A stretch of 64,000 bases of DNA, taken from contig NZ_BSTS01000011.1 of the NCBI RefSeq assembly GCF_030269665.1, positions 62,001 to 126,000 of the forward strand. The letters run 5' to 3'. Positions within the stretch are counted from its first letter, which is position 1, and each line of letters begins with the position of its first letter. The notes below the pieces were generated by a model, which was not told where the DNA came from, searched no databases, and was given only the letters and a program-made list of their open reading frames with translations. A program made the translations under genes and the position numbers. Shown one piece after another: positions 49,620 through 58,211 of the stretch. The DNA comes from Actinomycetospora sp. NBRC 106375 (GTDB lineage Bacteria > Actinomycetota > Actinomycetes > Mycobacteriales > Pseudonocardiaceae).

Positions 49620-50648
49620 CTACGCCTCGACCCCGACCGCGCGGCGCACCCCGCGCAGCGTGCGGGACGCCTGCTCGCGGGCGATCTCTCCGCCGCGGGC
49701 GAGGATCGCGTCGAGCTCGCTGCCCGGGGCCACGAGCTCGGCATAGCGCTCCCGCAGGGGGCCCAGCGTCTGCTCGAGCACCTCGGCGAGCTGGTTCTTC
49801 AGGTCGCCCCAGCCCACGCCGCCGGCCCCGAGGCGCTTGCGGGTGTCGGCGAGGACGTCGGGCTCGGCGAACTGCGCGAGGATCTGGAACACCGCCGACG
49901 AGTCCGGGTCCTTGGGCGCCTCGACCGGGGTGGAGTCGGTCGGGATGCGCCGGACCAGCTTCCCCAGCTGCGGCGCGGGCAGGAAGAGCGGGATGTAGTT
50001 GTCGTACGACTTGCTCATCTTGCGGCCGTCGAGCCCGGGCAGCGTGTGGCCCGTCGTCTCGGGGGGCACGACCGCCTCGGGGACGCGCAGGCGGAAGCCC
50101 TCGCCGTAGCGGTGGTTGAAGCTGCCCGCGACGTCGGCGGCGATCTCGACGTGCTGGAGCTGGTCGCGTCCCACCGGCACCAGGTCCGACTCCATGATCA
50201 GGATGTCGGCCGCCATGAGCACGGGGTACTCGTAGAGGCCCATGTTGATCCCGGCGTCCGGGTCGTCCCCGGCCTCGACGTTGCGGTCGCGGGCCGCCTT
50301 GTAGGCGTGCGCCCGGTTCATCAGCCCCTTGCCGGTGACACAGGAGAGGATCCACGTCAGCTCGAACGTCTCCGGGACGTCGGACTGCTTGTAGAACACC
50401 GTGCGCTCGGGGTCGAGACCCGCGGCGATCCAGGTCGCGGCGACCGAGCGGGTCCACGCGGCGATGTCGCCGGCGGCGGGTGTCCCCGTCAGGGCGTGGT
50501 GGTCGGCGATGAAGTACCGGGAGTCGAAGTCCGCGGTGCGCGCGAGCTCGAGGGCCGGCCGGATCGCGCCGACGTAGTTGCCCAGATGCGGCTCCCCGCT
50601 GGGCTTGATCCCGGTCAGGGCGATCTTGCGCCGTTCCGTCTCCGCCAC
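49620..50648 (-). CDS. trpS: tryptophanyl-tRNA synthetase
   Basis: 342 residues, a class I synthetase. The HIGH-equivalent is GIKPSGEPHLGNYVGAI, KMSKS is intact in LDGRKMSKSYDNYI, and DLVPVGRDQLQHVEIAAD is the tryptophan-site segment. GTG 50648 lies six bases after TAGGCT, a leaderless layout. It is divergent from the S9 peptidase across 70 bp. Confidence 0.95.
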   Translation of the reverse strand: MAETERRKIALTGIKPSGEPHLGNYVGAIRPALELARTADFDSRYFIADHHALTGTPAAGDIAAWTRSVAATWIAAGLDPERTVFYKQSDVPETFELTWILSCVTGKGLMNRAHAYKAARDRNVEAGDDPDAGINMGLYEYPVLMAADILIMESDLVPVGRDQLQHVEIAADVAGSFNHRYGEGFRLRVPEAVVPPETTGHTLPGLDGRKMSKSYDNYIPLFLPAPQLGKLVRRIPTDSTPVEAPKDPDSSAVFQILAQFAEPDVLADTRKRLGAGGVGWGDLKNQLAEVLEQTLGPLRERYAELVAPGSELDAILARGGEIAREQASRTLRGVRRAVGVEA

Positions 50649-50654
50649 GCCGCG

Positions 50655-50660
50655 AGCCTA
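50655..50660 (-). promoter_or_regulatory. -10 box of trpS (leaderless layout)
   Basis: TAGGCT on the minus strand ends six bases before the GTG at 50648. Confidence 0.55.
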
Positions 50661-50718
50661 TCGGGCGCCGGCCACCGGGTTCGGGCCTCGGCACGCTCCG
50701 GAGGGCAGACTGCGGGCC

Positions 50719-52821
50719 GTGCCCGTCGACCCCACCGCCAGCTTCCCGCGCCGCCAGGCCGCGACGCGCCGGTTCACGCTCGGGGCGCCCCGCCGGCCCA
50801 CGGTCTCGCCGGACGGCGGGCGGGTGGTGCTGCTGCGCAGTCGGGCCGGCGACGACCCGGTGACCTGCCTGTGGCTGCTCGACGTCGCGAGCGGTGCGGA
50901 GCACCTGCTCGTCGACCCCCGCGAGCTCGACGTCCCCGGCGAGGAGGATCTCCCGCCCGAGGAGCGGGCCCGCCGCGAGCGGGTGCGGGAGCAGTCGGGC
51001 GGGGTCGTGGAGTACGCCCTCGACGCCGCCGCGCGCCTCGCCGTCTTCGTGCTCTCGGGCCGGGCGTTCACCGTCGAGCTCGCGCCCGGGGCACGCCCCG
51101 AGCCGCTCCCCGTCGACGGGCCGGTGGTCGACCCGCGCCCCGATCCGACCGGCGCCCGCGTCGCCTTCGTCCGCGGCGGCGCGCTGCACGTCCACGAGCG
51201 CTCCACCGGCACCACCCACGTCCTCGTCGCGCCGGAGGAGGGGGACGCCCCGGGCGTCACGTGGGGGCTCGCGGAGTTCGTCGCCGCCGAGGAGATGAAC
51301 CGCTACCGCGGGTTCTGGTGGTCGCCCGACGGGTCGCAGCTGGCCGTCGCCCGCGTCGACGACCTGCCCGTGACGCGCTGGTGGATCGCCGACCCCGCGC
51401 ACCCCGAGCGCCGCCCGACCGAGATGCCCTACCCGGCCGCGGGGACGCCCAACGCCGCGGTGACGCTGCACCTGGTCGACCTCGACGGCACCCGCACGCC
51501 GGTCGAGCTGCCGGCGGGCACCGAGTACCTCGCCGACGTCACCTGGGACACCCACGACCTGCTCGCCACCGTGTCCACCCGCGACCAGCGGCGCATCGAC
51601 CTGCTGAGCGTCGACCCCGACACCGGGGCCGTCGACCCCGTCGCCGGCGAGGTCGACGACGCCTGGGTCGACCTGGTCCCCGGGGTGCCCGCGCACCTGC
51701 CCGACGGCGCGCTCGTGCGCTGCGCCGACCGGGACGACGCCCGCCGGCTCCTGGTCGACGGCGAGCCCGTCACCCCGCCGGGTCTGCAGGTGCGCGGCGT
51801 CGCGGACGTCGACGGCGCGACCGTCCTCTTCACCGCCTCGGAGCGGCCCGAGGACGTCACGCTGTGGACGTGGTCCCGCGAGGACGGTGCGCGGCGGATC
51901 GGGCCGCAGTACGGGGTCTGGTCGGGGCGCCGGGCGGGCGGGACCACCGTGCTCGCGGGCGGCGACCTCGACACGGACGGCACGCGCACCGAGATCCTCC
52001 GCGCCGACGGCGGCACGGTCGCGGTGGCGTCGTCCGCGCAGTCCCCGGACCTCGAGCCCGAGGTCCGCCGCGTCGCGACCGGGCCGGGCGGGCCGTCGGT
52101 GGCCGTGCTGCTGCCCCGGGGTCACGTCCCGGGCTCGCGGACACTGCCGGTGCTGCTCGACCCGTACGGCGGGCCGCACTCGCAGCGGGTCCTGGCGGCC
52201 CGGGGCGCCTTCCTGACCAGCCAGTGGTTCGCCGACCAGGGTTTCGCCGTCGTGGTCGCCGACGGGCGCGGGACACCCGGACGTGGTCCGGCCTACGAGC
52301 GGGCCGTGCGGGGCGACGTGGCCGGCCCGGTGCTCGACGACCAGGTCACGGCGCTGCACGTCGCCGCCGAGCAGGTCGGGGACCTGGACCTCGACCGCGT
52401 CGGCATCCGCGGCTGGTCGTTCGGCGGGTACCTCGCCGCCCTGGCGGTGCTGCGCAGACCCGACGTCTTCCACGCGGCGGTCGCCGGCGCCCCGGTGACC
52501 GACTGGCGCCTCTACGACACCCACTACACCGAGCGCTACCTCGGCCACCCCGACGAGGAGCCGGACGCCTACGCGCGGACCTCGCTGCTCGCCGACCCGG
52601 GGTCCGCCGCGCCCGTGCGCCCGTTGATGCTCATCCACGGGCTCGCGGACGACAACGTCGTCGCGGCGCACACGCTGCAGCTCTCGTCGTCGCTGCTCGC
52701 GGCCGGCTACCCCCACACCGTCCTGCCGCTCTCCGGCGTCACGCACATGACGCCGCAGGAGGTCGTGGCCGAGAACCTCCTCCTGCTCCAGGTCGAGTTC
52801 CTGCACGACGCCCTCGGCTAG
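50719..52821 (+). CDS. S9 family prolyl peptidase, DPP IV-like
   Basis: 700 residues. A beta-propeller N-terminal region (WSPDGSQLAVARVDD and similar blades) is followed by the alpha/beta hydrolase domain. The nucleophile is in GIRGWSFGGYLAAL, the acid in HGLADDNV and the base in SGVTHMTPQE. FVAAEEMNRYRGFWW carries the double Glu that anchors the substrate N-terminus in DPP IV, so it should remove Xaa-Pro dipeptides. There is no signal peptide. GTG 50719 lies seven bases after CAGACT. Confidence 0.9.
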   Translation: MPVDPTASFPRRQAATRRFTLGAPRRPTVSPDGGRVVLLRSRAGDDPVTCLWLLDVASGAEHLLVDPRELDVPGEEDLPPEERARRERVREQSGGVVEYALDAAARLAVFVLSGRAFTVELAPGARPEPLPVDGPVVDPRPDPTGARVAFVRGGALHVHERSTGTTHVLVAPEEGDAPGVTWGLAEFVAAEEMNRYRGFWWSPDGSQLAVARVDDLPVTRWWIADPAHPERRPTEMPYPAAGTPNAAVTLHLVDLDGTRTPVELPAGTEYLADVTWDTHDLLATVSTRDQRRIDLLSVDPDTGAVDPVAGEVDDAWVDLVPGVPAHLPDGALVRCADRDDARRLLVDGEPVTPPGLQVRGVADVDGATVLFTASERPEDVTLWTWSREDGARRIGPQYGVWSGRRAGGTTVLAGGDLDTDGTRTEILRADGGTVAVASSAQSPDLEPEVRRVATGPGGPSVAVLLPRGHVPGSRTLPVLLDPYGGPHSQRVLAARGAFLTSQWFADQGFAVVVADGRGTPGRGPAYERAVRGDVAGPVLDDQVTALHVAAEQVGDLDLDRVGIRGWSFGGYLAALAVLRRPDVFHAAVAGAPVTDWRLYDTHYTERYLGHPDEEPDAYARTSLLADPGSAAPVRPLMLIHGLADDNVVAAHTLQLSSSLLAAGYPHTVLPLSGVTHMTPQEVVAENLLLLQVEFLHDALG

Positions 52822-53020
52822 GTCCCACCGGAGCAGCGATCCGCTTTGCGATCGCGAACTCTTGTCCGGATTCCGCGAAACGGCACCCACGGCTCGCCGC
52901 TGTCGCCGACGCTGATCGGGCGAGGGCGAGCCGCGCCGTGCCCGATCGGGGCTGATCGGAACAGGCGCGGTCCCCGCCCCGCCCTGGCCCCCGGCCGGGC
53001 GCGCCGGCGGAGGGCGAGGA
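52822..53020 (+). promoter_or_regulatory. 199-bp upstream region of the trimodular secreted protein
   Basis: No gene is visible. TGATCGG occurs at two places and GATCG-type words recur, with GCGATC / GATCGC arms near 52837-52856. The ribosome site GGAGGGCGAGG ends about ten bases before ATG 53021. Confidence 0.4.
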
Positions 53021-56000
53021 ATGCGGCGGTCATCGTCCGGCGGCGACGCGTGGGCGGCGACGGATCGCCGGCGGTCCTCCGGCCCGGGCCGGCCCTGGGG
53101 CGCGCTCGCCGCGGGCGCCGCGCTGCTGACGTCCCTCGTGGTCGGTGCGGCCGGGGCGGTGAGCACGGGCGTGGTCACCCTCGCCGCCCCGACGGCGCCG
53201 GCGGAGTGCCGCGACGTCACCCTCTTCGCGGTCAACGGCGGTGGCGCGGCGGGCGGCGACACCCTCGCGGCGATCACCGACCCGCTGGTGCAGCGTGTCG
53301 GCCCGCGGCTCGCCGTGGTGGCGGTCCCGGGTCCCGAGCCCGGCGCGTCCTACGCCGCGAGCGAGCAGCAGGCCGTCACGGCGCTCGGCGACCAGGTCGC
53401 CGCGCAGGTCGCGGCGTGCCCGGACAGCCGGATCATGCTGTTCGGCTACTCCCAGGGCTCGCACGTCGCCGGTGACCTCGCCGGCCGGGTCGGCAACGGC
53501 CAGGAGACCCGGGTGCCCGCCGACCGCGTCGTCGCGGTCGGTCTCTTCGGTGACCCCGCCCGCGACGCGACCGCGGGCACCGTCCCCGACGGCGTGACGG
53601 GGCAGGGCGTGCTCCCGGCGCGGCCGGGTGGCTTCGGCACGCTGCGGGCGCGCACGATCGAGATCTGCGCGCCGCAGGACCCCGTGTGCGCCACGCCGGC
53701 CGGGTCGGCCGCGCCGCCGCTCGAGCAGGCCGTCGCGGCGCCCGCCCACATCGACTATCCGCAGCTCGAGCTGGCCCCGAGCACCCCGGCGACCCGCTGG
53801 GCGTCGGACTCGCTGGGCCGGCTCATCACCTCGCTCCCGGCCGCCGGCGCCGCCCAGCCGGGCGCCGCGGCAACGAGCACGCCACCCGGCGCCGGTCCGA
53901 CCGGAGCTCCCGGGGCGACGACGACCCCCGGCGCGGGTGCCCTGCCCGGCGCCGGCACCGTCGCGCCGGGCACGACGGCGTCGGGTACGACGGCACCGGA
54001 GGGCGGGGCGGCGGGCACGAGGACTCCCGGCCCGACGCCACCGGGTGGCGGGGCCGCGTCGGGCGGCGGCGGGGCCTACCCCGACGACCCGGGCACCACG
54101 GGCACGGGCACCACGGGTACGGGTACGGGCGGCGCGGGCACGGGAGGCGCCACGGCGACGACGTCGCCGGGCTCCGGCGGCGCCGACACGGGCGGGGCCG
54201 GGGGCGGTTACGACACGGGTTCGGGTGGCGCCGGTGACGGATCGGGTGGCACGACGGCGACGACGGCTACGGGCTCCGGCGGGGCGGCGACCCCCACGAC
54301 GGCGCCCGACGCCGGAGGGTCCACGGGTAGCACGGGGTCCACGGGGAGCACGGGGAGCACGGGGAGCACGGGGAGCACGGGGAGCACGGGCACCGAGTCG
54401 TCGCCGCGCCCGACCACACCGCCCGGCGAGGCGCCGGCCACCGGCCGCGGCGGCAGGGGCGGATCGGCCAGCGGCGGATCGGACAGCGGCGGATCGGACA
54501 GCGGCGGATCGGACAGCGGCGGCTCGGGCACGGGCGGTTCCGGCACCGGCGGATCCACCGGCAGCACCACCGGGAGCACCACCCGCAGCACCACCGGCTC
54601 GACGACGGCGCCCCGCACGACGCCTTCGGGCGGCGCCGACGCCTCCGGCCGGGCTGACGACCCCGGTCAGGGCGGGGGCTCGAGGCAGGACGATGGGTCG
54701 GGTGGCTCGGCGGACGGCGGCGGCTCCGGCGGTTCCGGCGGTTCGGGGAGCGCGGGTCAGGCCACCGACGCGTTGTGGTCGCTCACGTCCGGTCTCGCGG
54801 GCTTCCAGGACTCCAACGGAGGCAACGTCGAGGACGGCGGCCAGAACCCCGAGGAGGTCGAGAGCCCGAACGTGCCCGGCCGCCAGGTGGTCAAGCTCGA
54901 GGTGCCCCAGGGCGCCAAGCGCTCGGAGGTCCGCCCCGAGGAGGCCCAGGACATCCGCGCCGGTCAGCGCCGGTTCTTCGGCTACAGCGCGTTCCTGCCC
55001 CCCGACTTCCCCGTCGACACGAACTCCTGGCAGGTCGTCTGGCAGCTCCACGACGGCGGGACGAACACGTCGCCGCCCGTGGCGCTGGAGATCGTCGAGG
55101 GGCACCTGTGGCTGGCCAACGTCGGCGACCGCGTGCGCGACCTCGGACCGGTGCAGGCCGGCCGGAACCTCGCCGTGCAGCTCGACATCCGCTTCGAGGT
55201 CGGCGGCGGGTCCGTGTCGGTGTACCGCGAGGGCCAGCAGGTGCTGTCCGACTTCCGGCCGCCCCGCGGCACGATGATCGACGACTTCGACTACCTGAAG
55301 ACCGGCGTCTACCGCGACCCGGGCGGCGACGCCCGCCCCGCGAGCCTCTTCCTCAACGACCTCAAGATCGGCGAGACGCTGGCGTCCGTGTCCGGCCTCG
55401 CCGGGGCGAGCGGGACGGCCACCGAGGAGGGCGACGGGGCGAGCGCCGCCGGCCCGGGCGAGGGTTCCGGCAGCACCGCGGGGGGCGGCGGCACCGACGC
55501 GTCCAACACCGGCGCCGGCACGGGCACGAGCAGCCGCACCCGGACGCCGACCGGCGACACGGGCAGTACGGGCAGGACGGGCGCGGCGACGCCGGCGTCC
55601 GCGGGCGGCGGGTCCGGCGGGGACACCACGACCCCGACCGCGCGGACGTCGAGCGCCACCGCCCGCCCCGCGAGCACGACGAGCAGCACCGGAGACAGCA
55701 CCCGAGACAGCACCGGAGACAGCACCGCAGACAGCACCGGCGGCGGCGCCGCCGACACCACCGGCCCGGTCCAGGCCGTCGGCGGGCCGATCTGCGAGAA
55801 GTTCGGTTCGACCTCGGTCGCGGGCGGGCGGCTGCTCGTGCAGAACAACGAGTGGGGCGCCGACGACGGGCAGTGCATCCAGCCCAGCGGCGCGGGGTTC
55901 GGCATCTCGTCCGGCGACCACGACAGGCCCGACGGCCCGGCCGCGTACCCGTCGGTGATGGCCGGCTGCTGGATGCGGACCTGCACCGAGGGCACCACGC

Positions 56001-56467
56001 TCCCCGCGCGGATCGACGGGCTCGGCGCCATCACGTCGAGCATCGCGGCGACGACGACGCCGACCGGGCGCTACAACCTCGCCTACGACATCTGGGCCGA
56101 CCCGACACCGCGCCGCGACGGCCAGAACACCGGCACGGAGCTGATGATCTGGCTGAGGGAGAACGGCGGCATCGCCCCGATCGGGCAGCAGGAGGGCACG
56201 GCCACGATCGGGGGCGCGACCTGGGACGTCTGGCGCGGCGACAACGGCGGCGTCGACGTCATCTCGTACGTGCGCCAGGGCTACGTCGACGCGGCGCGGG
56301 ACCTGCCGATCACCGAGTTCGTGCAGGACGCCGTGCGGCAGGGCGCCGCGCGGCCGGACTGGTTCCTCACCACCATCCAGGCGGGCTTCGAGCCCTGGCA
56401 GGGCGGGCCGGGTCTCGCGATCCGTGAGTTCTCGGTCACCGAGCAGGGCGCCGGGCAGGCCCCCTGA
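53021..56467 (+). CDS. secreted trimodular protein: cutinase-like, polysaccharide-lyase-like and GH12 domains
   Basis: 1148 residues. A signal or anchor helix is at about 28-52. Residues 62-275 are cutinase-like: Cys63/Cys133, nucleophile Ser144 in FGYSQGSH, the CxxxDxxC acid Asp220 and His243. A Thr/Gly/Ser linker (281-580) has tandem repeats. Residues 581-790 resemble heparin-lyase I-type lyases: FFGYSAFLPPDFP, SWQVVWQLHDGG with His677, DDFDYLKTGVYRD. After a second linker, residues 917-1148 are a GH12 domain: CEKFGSTSVAGGRLLVQNNEWG, nucleophile Glu1040 in TELMIWL and acid/base Glu1124 in GFEPWQ. All three active sites look intact, so it could attack esters, uronic polysaccharide and glucan in plant matter. 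It is monocistronic. Confidence 0.82.
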   Translation: MRRSSSGGDAWAATDRRRSSGPGRPWGALAAGAALLTSLVVGAAGAVSTGVVTLAAPTAPAECRDVTLFAVNGGGAAGGDTLAAITDPLVQRVGPRLAVVAVPGPEPGASYAASEQQAVTALGDQVAAQVAACPDSRIMLFGYSQGSHVAGDLAGRVGNGQETRVPADRVVAVGLFGDPARDATAGTVPDGVTGQGVLPARPGGFGTLRARTIEICAPQDPVCATPAGSAAPPLEQAVAAPAHIDYPQLELAPSTPATRWASDSLGRLITSLPAAGAAQPGAAATSTPPGAGPTGAPGATTTPGAGALPGAGTVAPGTTASGTTAPEGGAAGTRTPGPTPPGGGAASGGGGAYPDDPGTTGTGTTGTGTGGAGTGGATATTSPGSGGADTGGAGGGYDTGSGGAGDGSGGTTATTATGSGGAATPTTAPDAGGSTGSTGSTGSTGSTGSTGSTGSTGTESSPRPTTPPGEAPATGRGGRGGSASGGSDSGGSDSGGSDSGGSGTGGSGTGGSTGSTTGSTTRSTTGSTTAPRTTPSGGADASGRADDPGQGGGSRQDDGSGGSADGGGSGGSGGSGSAGQATDALWSLTSGLAGFQDSNGGNVEDGGQNPEEVESPNVPGRQVVKLEVPQGAKRSEVRPEEAQDIRAGQRRFFGYSAFLPPDFPVDTNSWQVVWQLHDGGTNTSPPVALEIVEGHLWLANVGDRVRDLGPVQAGRNLAVQLDIRFEVGGGSVSVYREGQQVLSDFRPPRGTMIDDFDYLKTGVYRDPGGDARPASLFLNDLKIGETLASVSGLAGASGTATEEGDGASAAGPGEGSGSTAGGGGTDASNTGAGTGTSSRTRTPTGDTGSTGRTGAATPASAGGGSGGDTTTPTARTSSATARPASTTSSTGDSTRDSTGDSTADSTGGGAADTTGPVQAVGGPICEKFGSTSVAGGRLLVQNNEWGADDGQCIQPSGAGFGISSGDHDRPDGPAAYPSVMAGCWMRTCTEGTTLPARIDGLGAITSSIAATTTPTGRYNLAYDIWADPTPRRDGQNTGTELMIWLRENGGIAPIGQQEGTATIGGATWDVWRGDNGGVDVISYVRQGYVDAARDLPITEFVQDAVRQGAARPDWFLTTIQAGFEPWQGGPGLAIREFSVTEQGAGQAP
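54318..54400 (+). repeat. 9-bp tandem repeats in the first linker
   Basis: GGGAGCACG is repeated in register with minor variants and encodes repeated Gly-Ser-Thr. Slippage here could change linker length between strains. Confidence 0.8.
54464..54530 (+). repeat. 15-bp tandem repeats in the first linker
   Basis: Four copies of GGATCGGACAGCGGC or close variants encode Gly-Ser-Asp-Ser-Gly units. Confidence 0.8.
55690..55740 (+). repeat. 12-bp tandem repeats in the second linker
   Basis: GAGACAGCACCG and variants repeat four times and encode Asp-Ser-Thr-X units. Confidence 0.75.
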
Positions 56468-56549: not shown

Positions 56550-58211
56550 ATGAGGGCCAGCGACCTGTTCCTGCGTTGTCTCGAGGCCGAGGGCGTCGAG
56601 TACGTCTTCGGGGTCCCGGGCGAGGAGAACGCCGACCTCCTCATGTCGATGCGCGAGTCCTCGGTGCGGTTCGTGCCCACCCACCACGAGGCCGGCGCCG
56701 CGTTCATGGCCGATGTCTACGGGCGGCTCACCGGCCATCCCGGGGTGTGCCTGTCGACGCTCGGCCCGGGGGCGTCGAATCTCGTCACCGGCGTGGCCAA
56801 CGCGAACATGGACAACTCCCCAGTTGTGGCGATCACCGGGCAGGGCGCGACGACGCGGCTGCACAAGGAGTCGCACCAGGCGATGAACGTGGTCAACATG
56901 TTCTCGCCGATCACCAAGTGGACGACCTCGCTGCGTGACGAGATCACGATTCCCGAGGTCCTGCGCAAGGCGTTCAAGCTGGCGGGGGCGGAGAAGCCGG
57001 GCGCGACGCACGTCGAGCTGCCCGAGGACATCGCCAAGCACGAGGTCGACGCCGCGCCGATCGTGCCGCCCGAGAAGGTGCGCCGCCCGGTGCCCGACGA
57101 CAAGTCGATCGGCGCCGCGCTCGACCTCATCGCGCGTGCCGAGCGCCCGGTCCTGCTCGTCGGCCAGGGCTGCGTCCGCACCCGCGTCAGCCGCCAGCTG
57201 CAGCGGTTCGTCGAGTCGACCGGCATCTACGCGGGCATGACGTTCATGGGCAAGGGGGCGCTCTCCGACCGCCACGAGCGCAGCCTCTACGCCGTGGGCC
57301 TGGGCTCGCGCGACTACGTCACCGAGGTCTTCGAGGCCGCGGACCTCGTCATCGCCGTCGGGTACGACATGGTCGAGTGGCCGCCGGCGCGCTGGAACAT
57401 CGGGCGCACCAAGCGGCTCCTGCACATCGACTTCGACCCCGCCGAGGTCGACGACGCCTACCGCCCGACGGTGGAGATCGTCGGCGACGTCGCCGCGACG
57501 CTCTGGGCGATCAACGAGGGGCTCACCGAGGAGCACCGCTACCCCGACATCCACCTGCACCACCGGGTGCGCGAGTCGCTCACCGAGGAGATCACCGAGG
57601 CCGGGGCGGGCGCCGAGGCCGAGACCGGCGACTTCCCGATGAAGCCCCAGCGCATCCTGGCCGAGCTGCGCGCCGAGATGGACGACGAGGACATCCTGAT
57701 CTCGGACGTCGGCGCCCACAAGATGTGGGTCGCGCGGCACTACCCGACGTACTCGCCGAACTCCTGCATCATCTCCAACGGCTTCTGCTCGATGGGGATC
57801 GCGGTGCCGGGCGGGGTGTCGGCGGCCCTGGTGGAGCCCGAGCGCCGCGTGGTGGCGCTCTCCGGCGACGGCGGCTTCATGATGAACATGGCCGAGCTCG
57901 CCACGGCCACGCGCCTCGGCGTCGCGCCGGTCAACGTCGTCTGGGAGGACAACGACTACGGGCTGATCTCCTGGAAGCAGGAGGTGGAGTTCGGACACCA
58001 CTTCGGCACCGAGTTCACGACGCCCGACCTCGTCGCCGTGTCCCAGGGCCTCGGCTGCCACGCCCGGCGCATCGAGTCGGCCGACGAGTTCCGGCCCGCG
58101 CTGAAGGAGGCGTTCGACCGCCGCGACAAGCCCTCGGTGATCGTCGTGCCCGTCGACTACCGGGAGAACGTCAAGCTCACCAAGCGCCTCGGTCAGCTGA
58201 TCGCCCGGTGA
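56550..58211 (+). CDS. thiamine diphosphate enzyme, acetolactate synthase-like
   Basis: 553 residues with the three-domain ThDP fold. The catalytic Glu47 is in PTHHEAGAAFMADVYGRLTG. LSTLGPGASNLVTGVANAN and RRVVALSGDGGFMMNMAELATA (the GDG...N ThDP motif) are typical of AHAS/AlsS. It lacks an ilvN neighbour and the rest of an ilv operon, so a catabolic or carboligase role is as likely as branched-chain amino acid synthesis. ATG 56550 follows GGGAGTGGG. Confidence 0.85.
   Translation: MRASDLFLRCLEAEGVEYVFGVPGEENADLLMSMRESSVRFVPTHHEAGAAFMADVYGRLTGHPGVCLSTLGPGASNLVTGVANANMDNSPVVAITGQGATTRLHKESHQAMNVVNMFSPITKWTTSLRDEITIPEVLRKAFKLAGAEKPGATHVELPEDIAKHEVDAAPIVPPEKVRRPVPDDKSIGAALDLIARAERPVLLVGQGCVRTRVSRQLQRFVESTGIYAGMTFMGKGALSDRHERSLYAVGLGSRDYVTEVFEAADLVIAVGYDMVEWPPARWNIGRTKRLLHIDFDPAEVDDAYRPTVEIVGDVAATLWAINEGLTEEHRYPDIHLHHRVRESLTEEITEAGAGAEAETGDFPMKPQRILAELRAEMDDEDILISDVGAHKMWVARHYPTYSPNSCIISNGFCSMGIAVPGGVSAALVEPERRVVALSGDGGFMMNMAELATATRLGVAPVNVVWEDNDYGLISWKQEVEFGHHFGTEFTTPDLVAVSQGLGCHARRIESADEFRPALKEAFDRRDKPSVIVVPVDYRENVKLTKRLGQLIAR

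What the first reader, a model, noticed from the sequence alone, without database searches (positions are those of the whole stretch)
53021..56467. One secreted polypeptide with cutinase-like, polysaccharide-lyase-like and GH12 domains
Seen: an N-terminal helix, a cutinase-type triad (Ser144, Asp220, His243 with two Cys pairs), a heparin-lyase-I-like domain (WQLHDGG) and a GH12 domain with both catalytic Glu (1040, 1124), joined by two repetitive linkers. Known: each domain is separately used on plant cutin, uronic polysaccharide or glucan. Inference: a self-contained cellulosome-like degradative enzyme that needs no scaffold. I know of no described protein with this trio.
Basis: partly seen in the sequence, partly recalled or inferred. 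Interest (0 to 1): 0.85.

Follow-up and report, generated by a model that had tools for sequence, protein, structure and literature searches.

The report
Three-enzyme surface protein of Actinomycetospora
One bacterial protein really does carry three different enzyme domains on one chain (an esterase, a sugar-polymer lyase and a cellulase-type domain), but it looks like a genus-specific, probably membrane-tethered glycan-processing protein rather than a plant-cutin-degrading mini-cellulosome.

The parts
53021..56467 (+). gene for the 1148-aa three-domain protein
53009..53014 (+). GGAGGG, ribosome-binding-like stretch before the ATG
   Evidence: read from the sequence
52878..52891 (+). AAACGGCACCCACG, upstream element; pattern AAACSGCACCCACG kept exactly at this locus in 11 of the genus genomes including own; 2 sites in the whole own genome
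53102..53191 (+). hydrophobic helix, residues about 28-57; signal peptide or membrane anchor
   Evidence: hydropathy; position after an extra N-terminal domain in relatives
53195..53845 (+). Rv3802c-like serine esterase domain (Pfam Cutinase), residues 59-275, Ser144/Asp220/His243
53846..54775 (+). linker 1, residues 276-585, Gly/Ser/Thr/Ala/Pro-rich
54776..55390 (+). PF14099 jelly-roll lyase domain, residues 586-790, glucuronan-lyase-like fold
55391..55780 (+). linker 2, residues 791-920
55781..56446 (+). GH12 domain, residues 921-1142, Glu1040 and Glu1124
50578..52821 (+). upstream neighbour, S9/DPP-IV-type peptidase (start as listed mechanically), conserved in position
56550..58211 (+). downstream neighbour, thiamine-pyrophosphate enzyme, conserved in position

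Best explanation
It is a genus-specific ecto-enzyme of Actinomycetospora. A hydrophobic helix (probably a membrane anchor) is followed by a membrane-proximal Rv3802c-like serine esterase, then on long flexible linkers a PF14099 lyase domain with a glucuronan-lyase-like fold, and in this strain a GH12 endo-beta-1,4-glucanase. SHOWN: the three domains on one chain, intact catalytic-type residues, conservation of the esterase-lyase pair and of the locus, and the nearest folds. INFERRED: the domains act on beta-1,4-linked glucan/glucuronan material of the bacterium's own envelope or exopolysaccharide. On this view the esterase removes acyl groups (O-acetyl or lipid acyl), the lyase cuts uronate runs by beta-elimination and GH12 cuts neutral glucose runs, with the linkers letting the outer domains reach through the wall. 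The esterase-lyase pair is the conserved core and GH12 the variable outer module.
Confidence: 0.45

Rival explanations
1. Secreted saprophytic enzyme for plant or lichen matter: esterase, lyase and glucanase together open plant polymer mixtures.
For: GH12 is nearest endo-1,4-glucanases (that these come from Streptomyces is recalled); fungal relatives of the lyase fold (glucuronan lyase, Cip1) come from a biomass degrader; the genome has 3 further GH12 matches; the own protein lacks the extra N-terminal domain, so secretion is possible.
Against: Esterase nearest an envelope lipase; an N-terminal domain before the helix in 9 of 12 relatives tested; no CBM reported by Pfam; GH12 missing at this locus in 9 of 10 genomes of the own clade.
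Confidence: 0.25
2. The PF14099 domain is a non-catalytic sugar-binding module that aims the esterase and, where present, GH12 (compatible with several of the other readings).
For: In 7 of 7 of the other clade the His of Q-x-H is Lys and the second Arg is Glu; three distant relatives also have Lys at the His site (L074-L076); Cip1 with a similar fold had no convincing lyase activity.
Against: The own clade keeps RSEVR and QLH in 10 of 10 and Y-L-K-T-G-[VI]-Y in 8 of 10 rows, Phe for the first Tyr in two; Tyr764 and Gln675 are kept in 17 of 17.
Confidence: 0.2
3. Envelope-lipid enzyme: the esterase is the working part, cutting acyl-lipid or lipoglycan anchors at the membrane, and the glycan domains only clear or bind the surrounding polysaccharide (overlaps the best explanation).
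For: Closest characterised relative Rv3802c is a phospholipase/thioesterase (abstract); the esterase sits next to the membrane helix and its triad is kept in 17 of 17.
Against: NCBIfam Culp6 score 57 bits against a cut-off of 570, so it is not Culp6; mycolic acids are not expected in this genus (recalled).
Confidence: 0.25

Closest known systems
Rv3802c (5W95; that it is Culp6 is recalled) and MSMEG_6394 (3AJA)
   Different: Far below the Culp6 equivalog cut-off; carries lyase and GH12 domains on the same chain; its neighbours here are an S9 peptidase and a TPP enzyme, not a mycolate cluster
Endo-beta-1,4-glucuronan lyase of Trichoderma reesei (2ZZJ; PL20)
   Different: Chain of 238 residues without esterase or GH12; own domain has a PL7/PL13-like Q-x-H motif (recalled); residue pairing around the Gln is not settled
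Heparinase I (PL13) and PL7 alginate lyases
   Different: About 12-16% identity; ranks below glucuronan lyase there, though Foldseek ranks PL7 first
GH12 endoglucanases 1OA4 and 1NLR
   Same: Same family over the whole domain (E 5e-61 and 7e-58), both catalytic Glu
   Different: Those solved chains (222 and 234 residues) carry no esterase or lyase domain
GH12-lyase paralogue of A. soli and A. termitidis (L066, L067)
   Same: GH12 and the same PF14099 subgroup on one chain, in reverse order
   Different: No esterase domain found; a hydrophobic helix at the C-terminus was seen in the termitidis copy (L040)
Engineered glucuronan lyase-chitinase fusion (PMC7601620)
   Same: A lyase joined to a hydrolase on one chain
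   Different: Man-made; seen only as a search listing with the start of its abstract

Membership tests
Cutinase family (Pfam PF01083) | profile score over the curated cut-off | tested here: met
   58.3 bits against 25.9
Cutinase family (Pfam PF01083) | Ser-Asp-His triad and four cysteines | tested here: met
   17 of 17 sequences; that the cysteines form disulfides is not tested
Culp6 (NCBIfam NF050160) | equivalog cut-off 570 bits | tested here: not met
   57.4 bits on the domain alone, 51.1 on the whole protein
Culp6 | fold | tested here: met
Plant-cutin cutinase | cutin hydrolysis | not testable with these tools
   needs an assay; nearest relatives are not the fungal cutinases
PF14099 Polysacc_lyase | profile score over the curated cut-off | tested here: met
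   57.7 bits against 29.9
PL20 glucuronan lyase | fold | tested here: met
PL20 glucuronan lyase | sequence membership and catalytic residues | tested here: inconclusive
   E 0.0037 only; Tyr764 pairs with a Tyr of 2ZZJ, but Gln675 is paired one residue off its Gln
PL20 glucuronan lyase | beta-elimination on glucuronan | not testable with these tools
   needs an assay
GH12 | profile score and both catalytic Glu | tested here: met
   128.2 bits against 27; Glu pair in 7 of 7
Cellulosome or cellulosomal enzyme | dockerin/cohesin modules | tested here: not met
   none reported by Pfam at E up to 1

The most novel reading that the evidence does not exclude
A dedicated membrane-tethered machine for one self-made polymer: an acylated beta-1,4-glucan/glucuronan chain (partly oxidised cellulose) at the Actinomycetospora surface. 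The esterase strips acyl groups that block the lyase, the lyase cuts uronate runs and GH12 cuts glucose runs. This would imply an undescribed mixed glucan-glucuronan exopolysaccharide in this genus and would explain why PF14099 genes are multiplied there.
Probability: 0.2. Interest if true: 0.75.

Novelty: new variant of a known kind. Interest (0 to 1): 0.47.

Why it matters
Modular enzymes with several catalytic domains are well known, but joining an Rv3802c-like lipid-type esterase to a lyase and a cellulase-type domain on one apparently anchored chain is unusual, and the listings of my searches showed no description of it. Because the core pair is conserved in a genus where the lyase family is multiplied, it gives a concrete handle on an uncharacterised actinobacterial surface polysaccharide. 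The natural series (core pair alone, with GH12, with an altered lyase site) is a ready-made comparison for testing how module gain and loss changes function.

Tried and rejected
Frameshift or assembly artefact: rejected, since the same frame is found in six other genomes. Recent transfer of GH12 from the other clade: disfavoured, because own GH12 is 60-67% identical to the eight fused GH12 rows of that clade's genomes and branches as sister to all eight (100/97). Whether GH12 was lost several times in the own clade or gained once is unsettled: the group joining own to its four nearest species has supports of 60, 65 and 61 in the three trees; the branches beside own have 50-66 (flanking genes) and 50-51 (esterase plus lyase), and the TPP-enzyme tree puts it elsewhere (with succinea and lutea, 82). 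Shared sorting domain: the ~77-aa N-terminal domain gave strong matches only at this locus in the 21 genomes searched (other matches E 0.001-0.01; 150 candidates per genome were scored, fewer than the first look found). Same architecture elsewhere: a pattern-limited scan of genome contigs gave 21 loci, 17 in Actinomycetospora and 4 (Catellatospora x2, Streptomyces, Kineosphaera) where BLAST with the own domains found the lyase domain only. In 279 other Pseudonocardiaceae genomes, 7 have a match at E 1e-12, all listed frames at most 706 aa, which I did not examine for other domains; at most 10 candidates per genome were scored. In 396 evenly drawn phylum genomes only own and one other match at E 1e-10 (at most 8 candidates scored per genome). 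Plasmid records: 205 match in part, none covers 80% of the protein. Chemistry from the fold alone: rejected, as the jelly-roll fold is shared widely. The polA tree was discarded because the script took wrong frames; searches stopped with script errors, and repeats the work with 15 of the 18 genomes (soli, G003 and G025 were dropped because my motif missed them).

Full report
OBSERVATION. The frame 53021-56467 (+) is open for 1148 codons, with ATG preceded by GGAGGG. Pfam places Cutinase at 63-227, PF14099 at 606-777 and GH12 at 937-1139, scoring 2.3, 1.9 and 4.7 times their cut-offs. The linkers are coding sequence by composition: second-position GC is 0.91 and 0.87 there against 0.44-0.60 in the domains, and third positions stay at 0.88-0.98 GC throughout.

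GENUS AND CONSERVATION. Named relatives found by the lyase domain belong to Actinomycetospora in 17 of 21 loci. In the 18 genomes held for the genus, a strong match to this lyase subgroup at the orthologous locus occurs in 17; in all 17 the cutinase domain is in the same frame. The exception, G025, is 59% complete. GH12 is in the same frame in 7 of 18: the window genome, G003, sp. NBRC 106378, A. termitidis, A. chiangmaiensis, A. soli and A. endophytica. Besides own, Pfam confirms the three families in five of these (G003 was not Pfam-scanned as a protein). Two clades are visible: clade A (own and nine others, 73-82% identity to own in the esterase, 79-89% in the lyase) and clade B (seven, about 55% and 43-48%). 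GH12 is present in 1 of 10 of clade A and 6 of 7 of clade B.

LOCUS. An S9/DPP-IV-type peptidase gene lies upstream in 15 of 16 relatives checked (MAG54's contig starts inside our gene), and a TPP-enzyme gene downstream in 15 of 16 (A. cinnamomea gave no hit) (families). So the proteins are orthologues in place, and GH12 is a C-terminal presence/absence. In the clade A relatives printed, the chain ends 19-77 residues after the lyase domain.

HISTORY OF GH12. In a tree of 51 GH12 rows (45 different) the own domain is sister to the eight fused GH12 rows of clade B genomes (set of nine 100/100; the eight 100/97), away from the free GH12s. Identity is 60-67%. This fits an old fused GH12, kept here and lost in the rest of clade A, but one old gain is not excluded. 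The own strain's place within clade A is weakly supported.

GH12. Nearest solved relatives are endo-1,4-glucanases 1OA4 and 1NLR. Both Glu are kept in 7 of 7. Entries named xyloglucan-specific rank far lower (best E 1.8e-8 against 5e-61).

ANCHOR. The hydrophobic stretch is at about 28-57. In 9 of the 12 genus relatives a ~77-aa domain precedes it; no Pfam family was reported there in the three of these nine proteins scanned (L068, L069, L073). It is absent in the own strain, A. straminea and A. lemnae, and G004's contig is cut there. Genomes G021-G024 were not in that search. A helix after a folded N-terminal domain is hard to read as a cleaved signal peptide, so I read the family as anchored; for the own protein this is inference.

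MECHANISM. Glucuronan is a beta-1,4-linked glucuronic acid polymer with O-acetyl groups at C2/C3, and T. reesei lyase is described as needing stretches without acetyl (passages of PMC10180729). GH12 acts on beta-1,4-glucan. So esterase, lyase and glucanase can be seen as acting on one family of beta-1,4-linked chains. The lyase family is multiplied in this genus: 4-12 matches per genome in 18 of 18 at E 0.001; at the stricter E 1e-12, 18 of 18 genus genomes against 7 of 279 other Pseudonocardiaceae genomes have a match. Three of five PF14099 copies in the own genome lie within about 55 kb on contig C15. In the three stretches I read there (60-80, 100-120 and 120-130 kb; 80-100 kb was not read) lie an AT3-SGNH acyltransferase, a UDP-glucose/GDP-mannose-type dehydrogenase, a Wzy-type ligase, a glycosyltransferase and a C-methyltransferase. 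Genes were picked by a composition script of my own and 9 were scanned; two had no family. That favours self-polysaccharide as substrate for the family, though our gene is elsewhere. Against the neat deacetylation story stands the esterase's nearest relative, a lipid esterase; the alternative is that it cuts acyl lipids at the membrane.

SELECTION. Within clades dN/dS is 0.05-0.20 (13 values from five species pairs), so each domain is under constraint. Own against seven clade A relatives: esterase 0.21-0.30, lyase 0.15-0.46. Own against clade B relatives: 0.51-1.17, where dS is probably compressed by the 96-98% GC third positions; I do not read this as positive selection. Three of the 16 relatives (MAGbin99, MAG54, G003) were left out of this count.

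LITERATURE. Searches listed no paper whose title or shown abstract describes the trio; I saw listings only. I read the abstract of PMC2625445 and passages of PMC3764139 and PMC10180729. An engineered glucuronan lyase-chitinase fusion is listed.

VERDICT. The protein is a new domain combination among known multi-domain carbohydrate enzymes, conserved in one genus. The plant-cutin and cellulosome reading should be dropped; a tethered enzyme for surface glycan is the better working model, unproven.

Noticed in passing
window 52878-52891: AAACGGCACCCACG upstream of the gene; the pattern AAACSGCACCCACG is kept exactly at this locus in 11 genomes of the genus including own (4 of clade A, 7 of clade B) and occurs only twice in the own genome. 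Within one mismatch the window has 1 site, 0.03 expected. Possibly a regulatory site.
   Followed up: partly
L057-L073 and G handles: PF14099 lyase genes are strongly multiplied in Actinomycetospora and rare in other Pseudonocardiaceae.
   Followed up: partly
L146-L148 (own genome contig C15): Three PF14099 genes in a region with exopolysaccharide-type genes (AT3-SGNH acyltransferase, UDP-glucose/GDP-mannose-type dehydrogenase, Wzy-type ligase, glycosyltransferase).
   Followed up: partly
L066, L067: A second fusion, GH12 then lyase, in A. soli and A. termitidis; the termitidis copy ends in a hydrophobic helix.
   Followed up: partly
L039, L060-L063, L065, L068, L069, L073 upstream of the esterase domain: A ~77-aa N-terminal domain ahead of the hydrophobic helix, with strong matches only at this locus in the 21 genomes.
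   Followed up: partly
L068-L073, lyase domain: Clade B (7 of 7, with G003) and three distant relatives (L074-L076) have Q-F-K in place of Q-L-H; either a binding-only or a differently built lyase site.
   Followed up: partly
L058 against L057: The TPP-enzyme gene beside the locus in A. lemnae is 89% identical to own where its near relative A. straminea has 97%, and its tree disagrees with the others, as if replaced by recombination.
   Followed up: no
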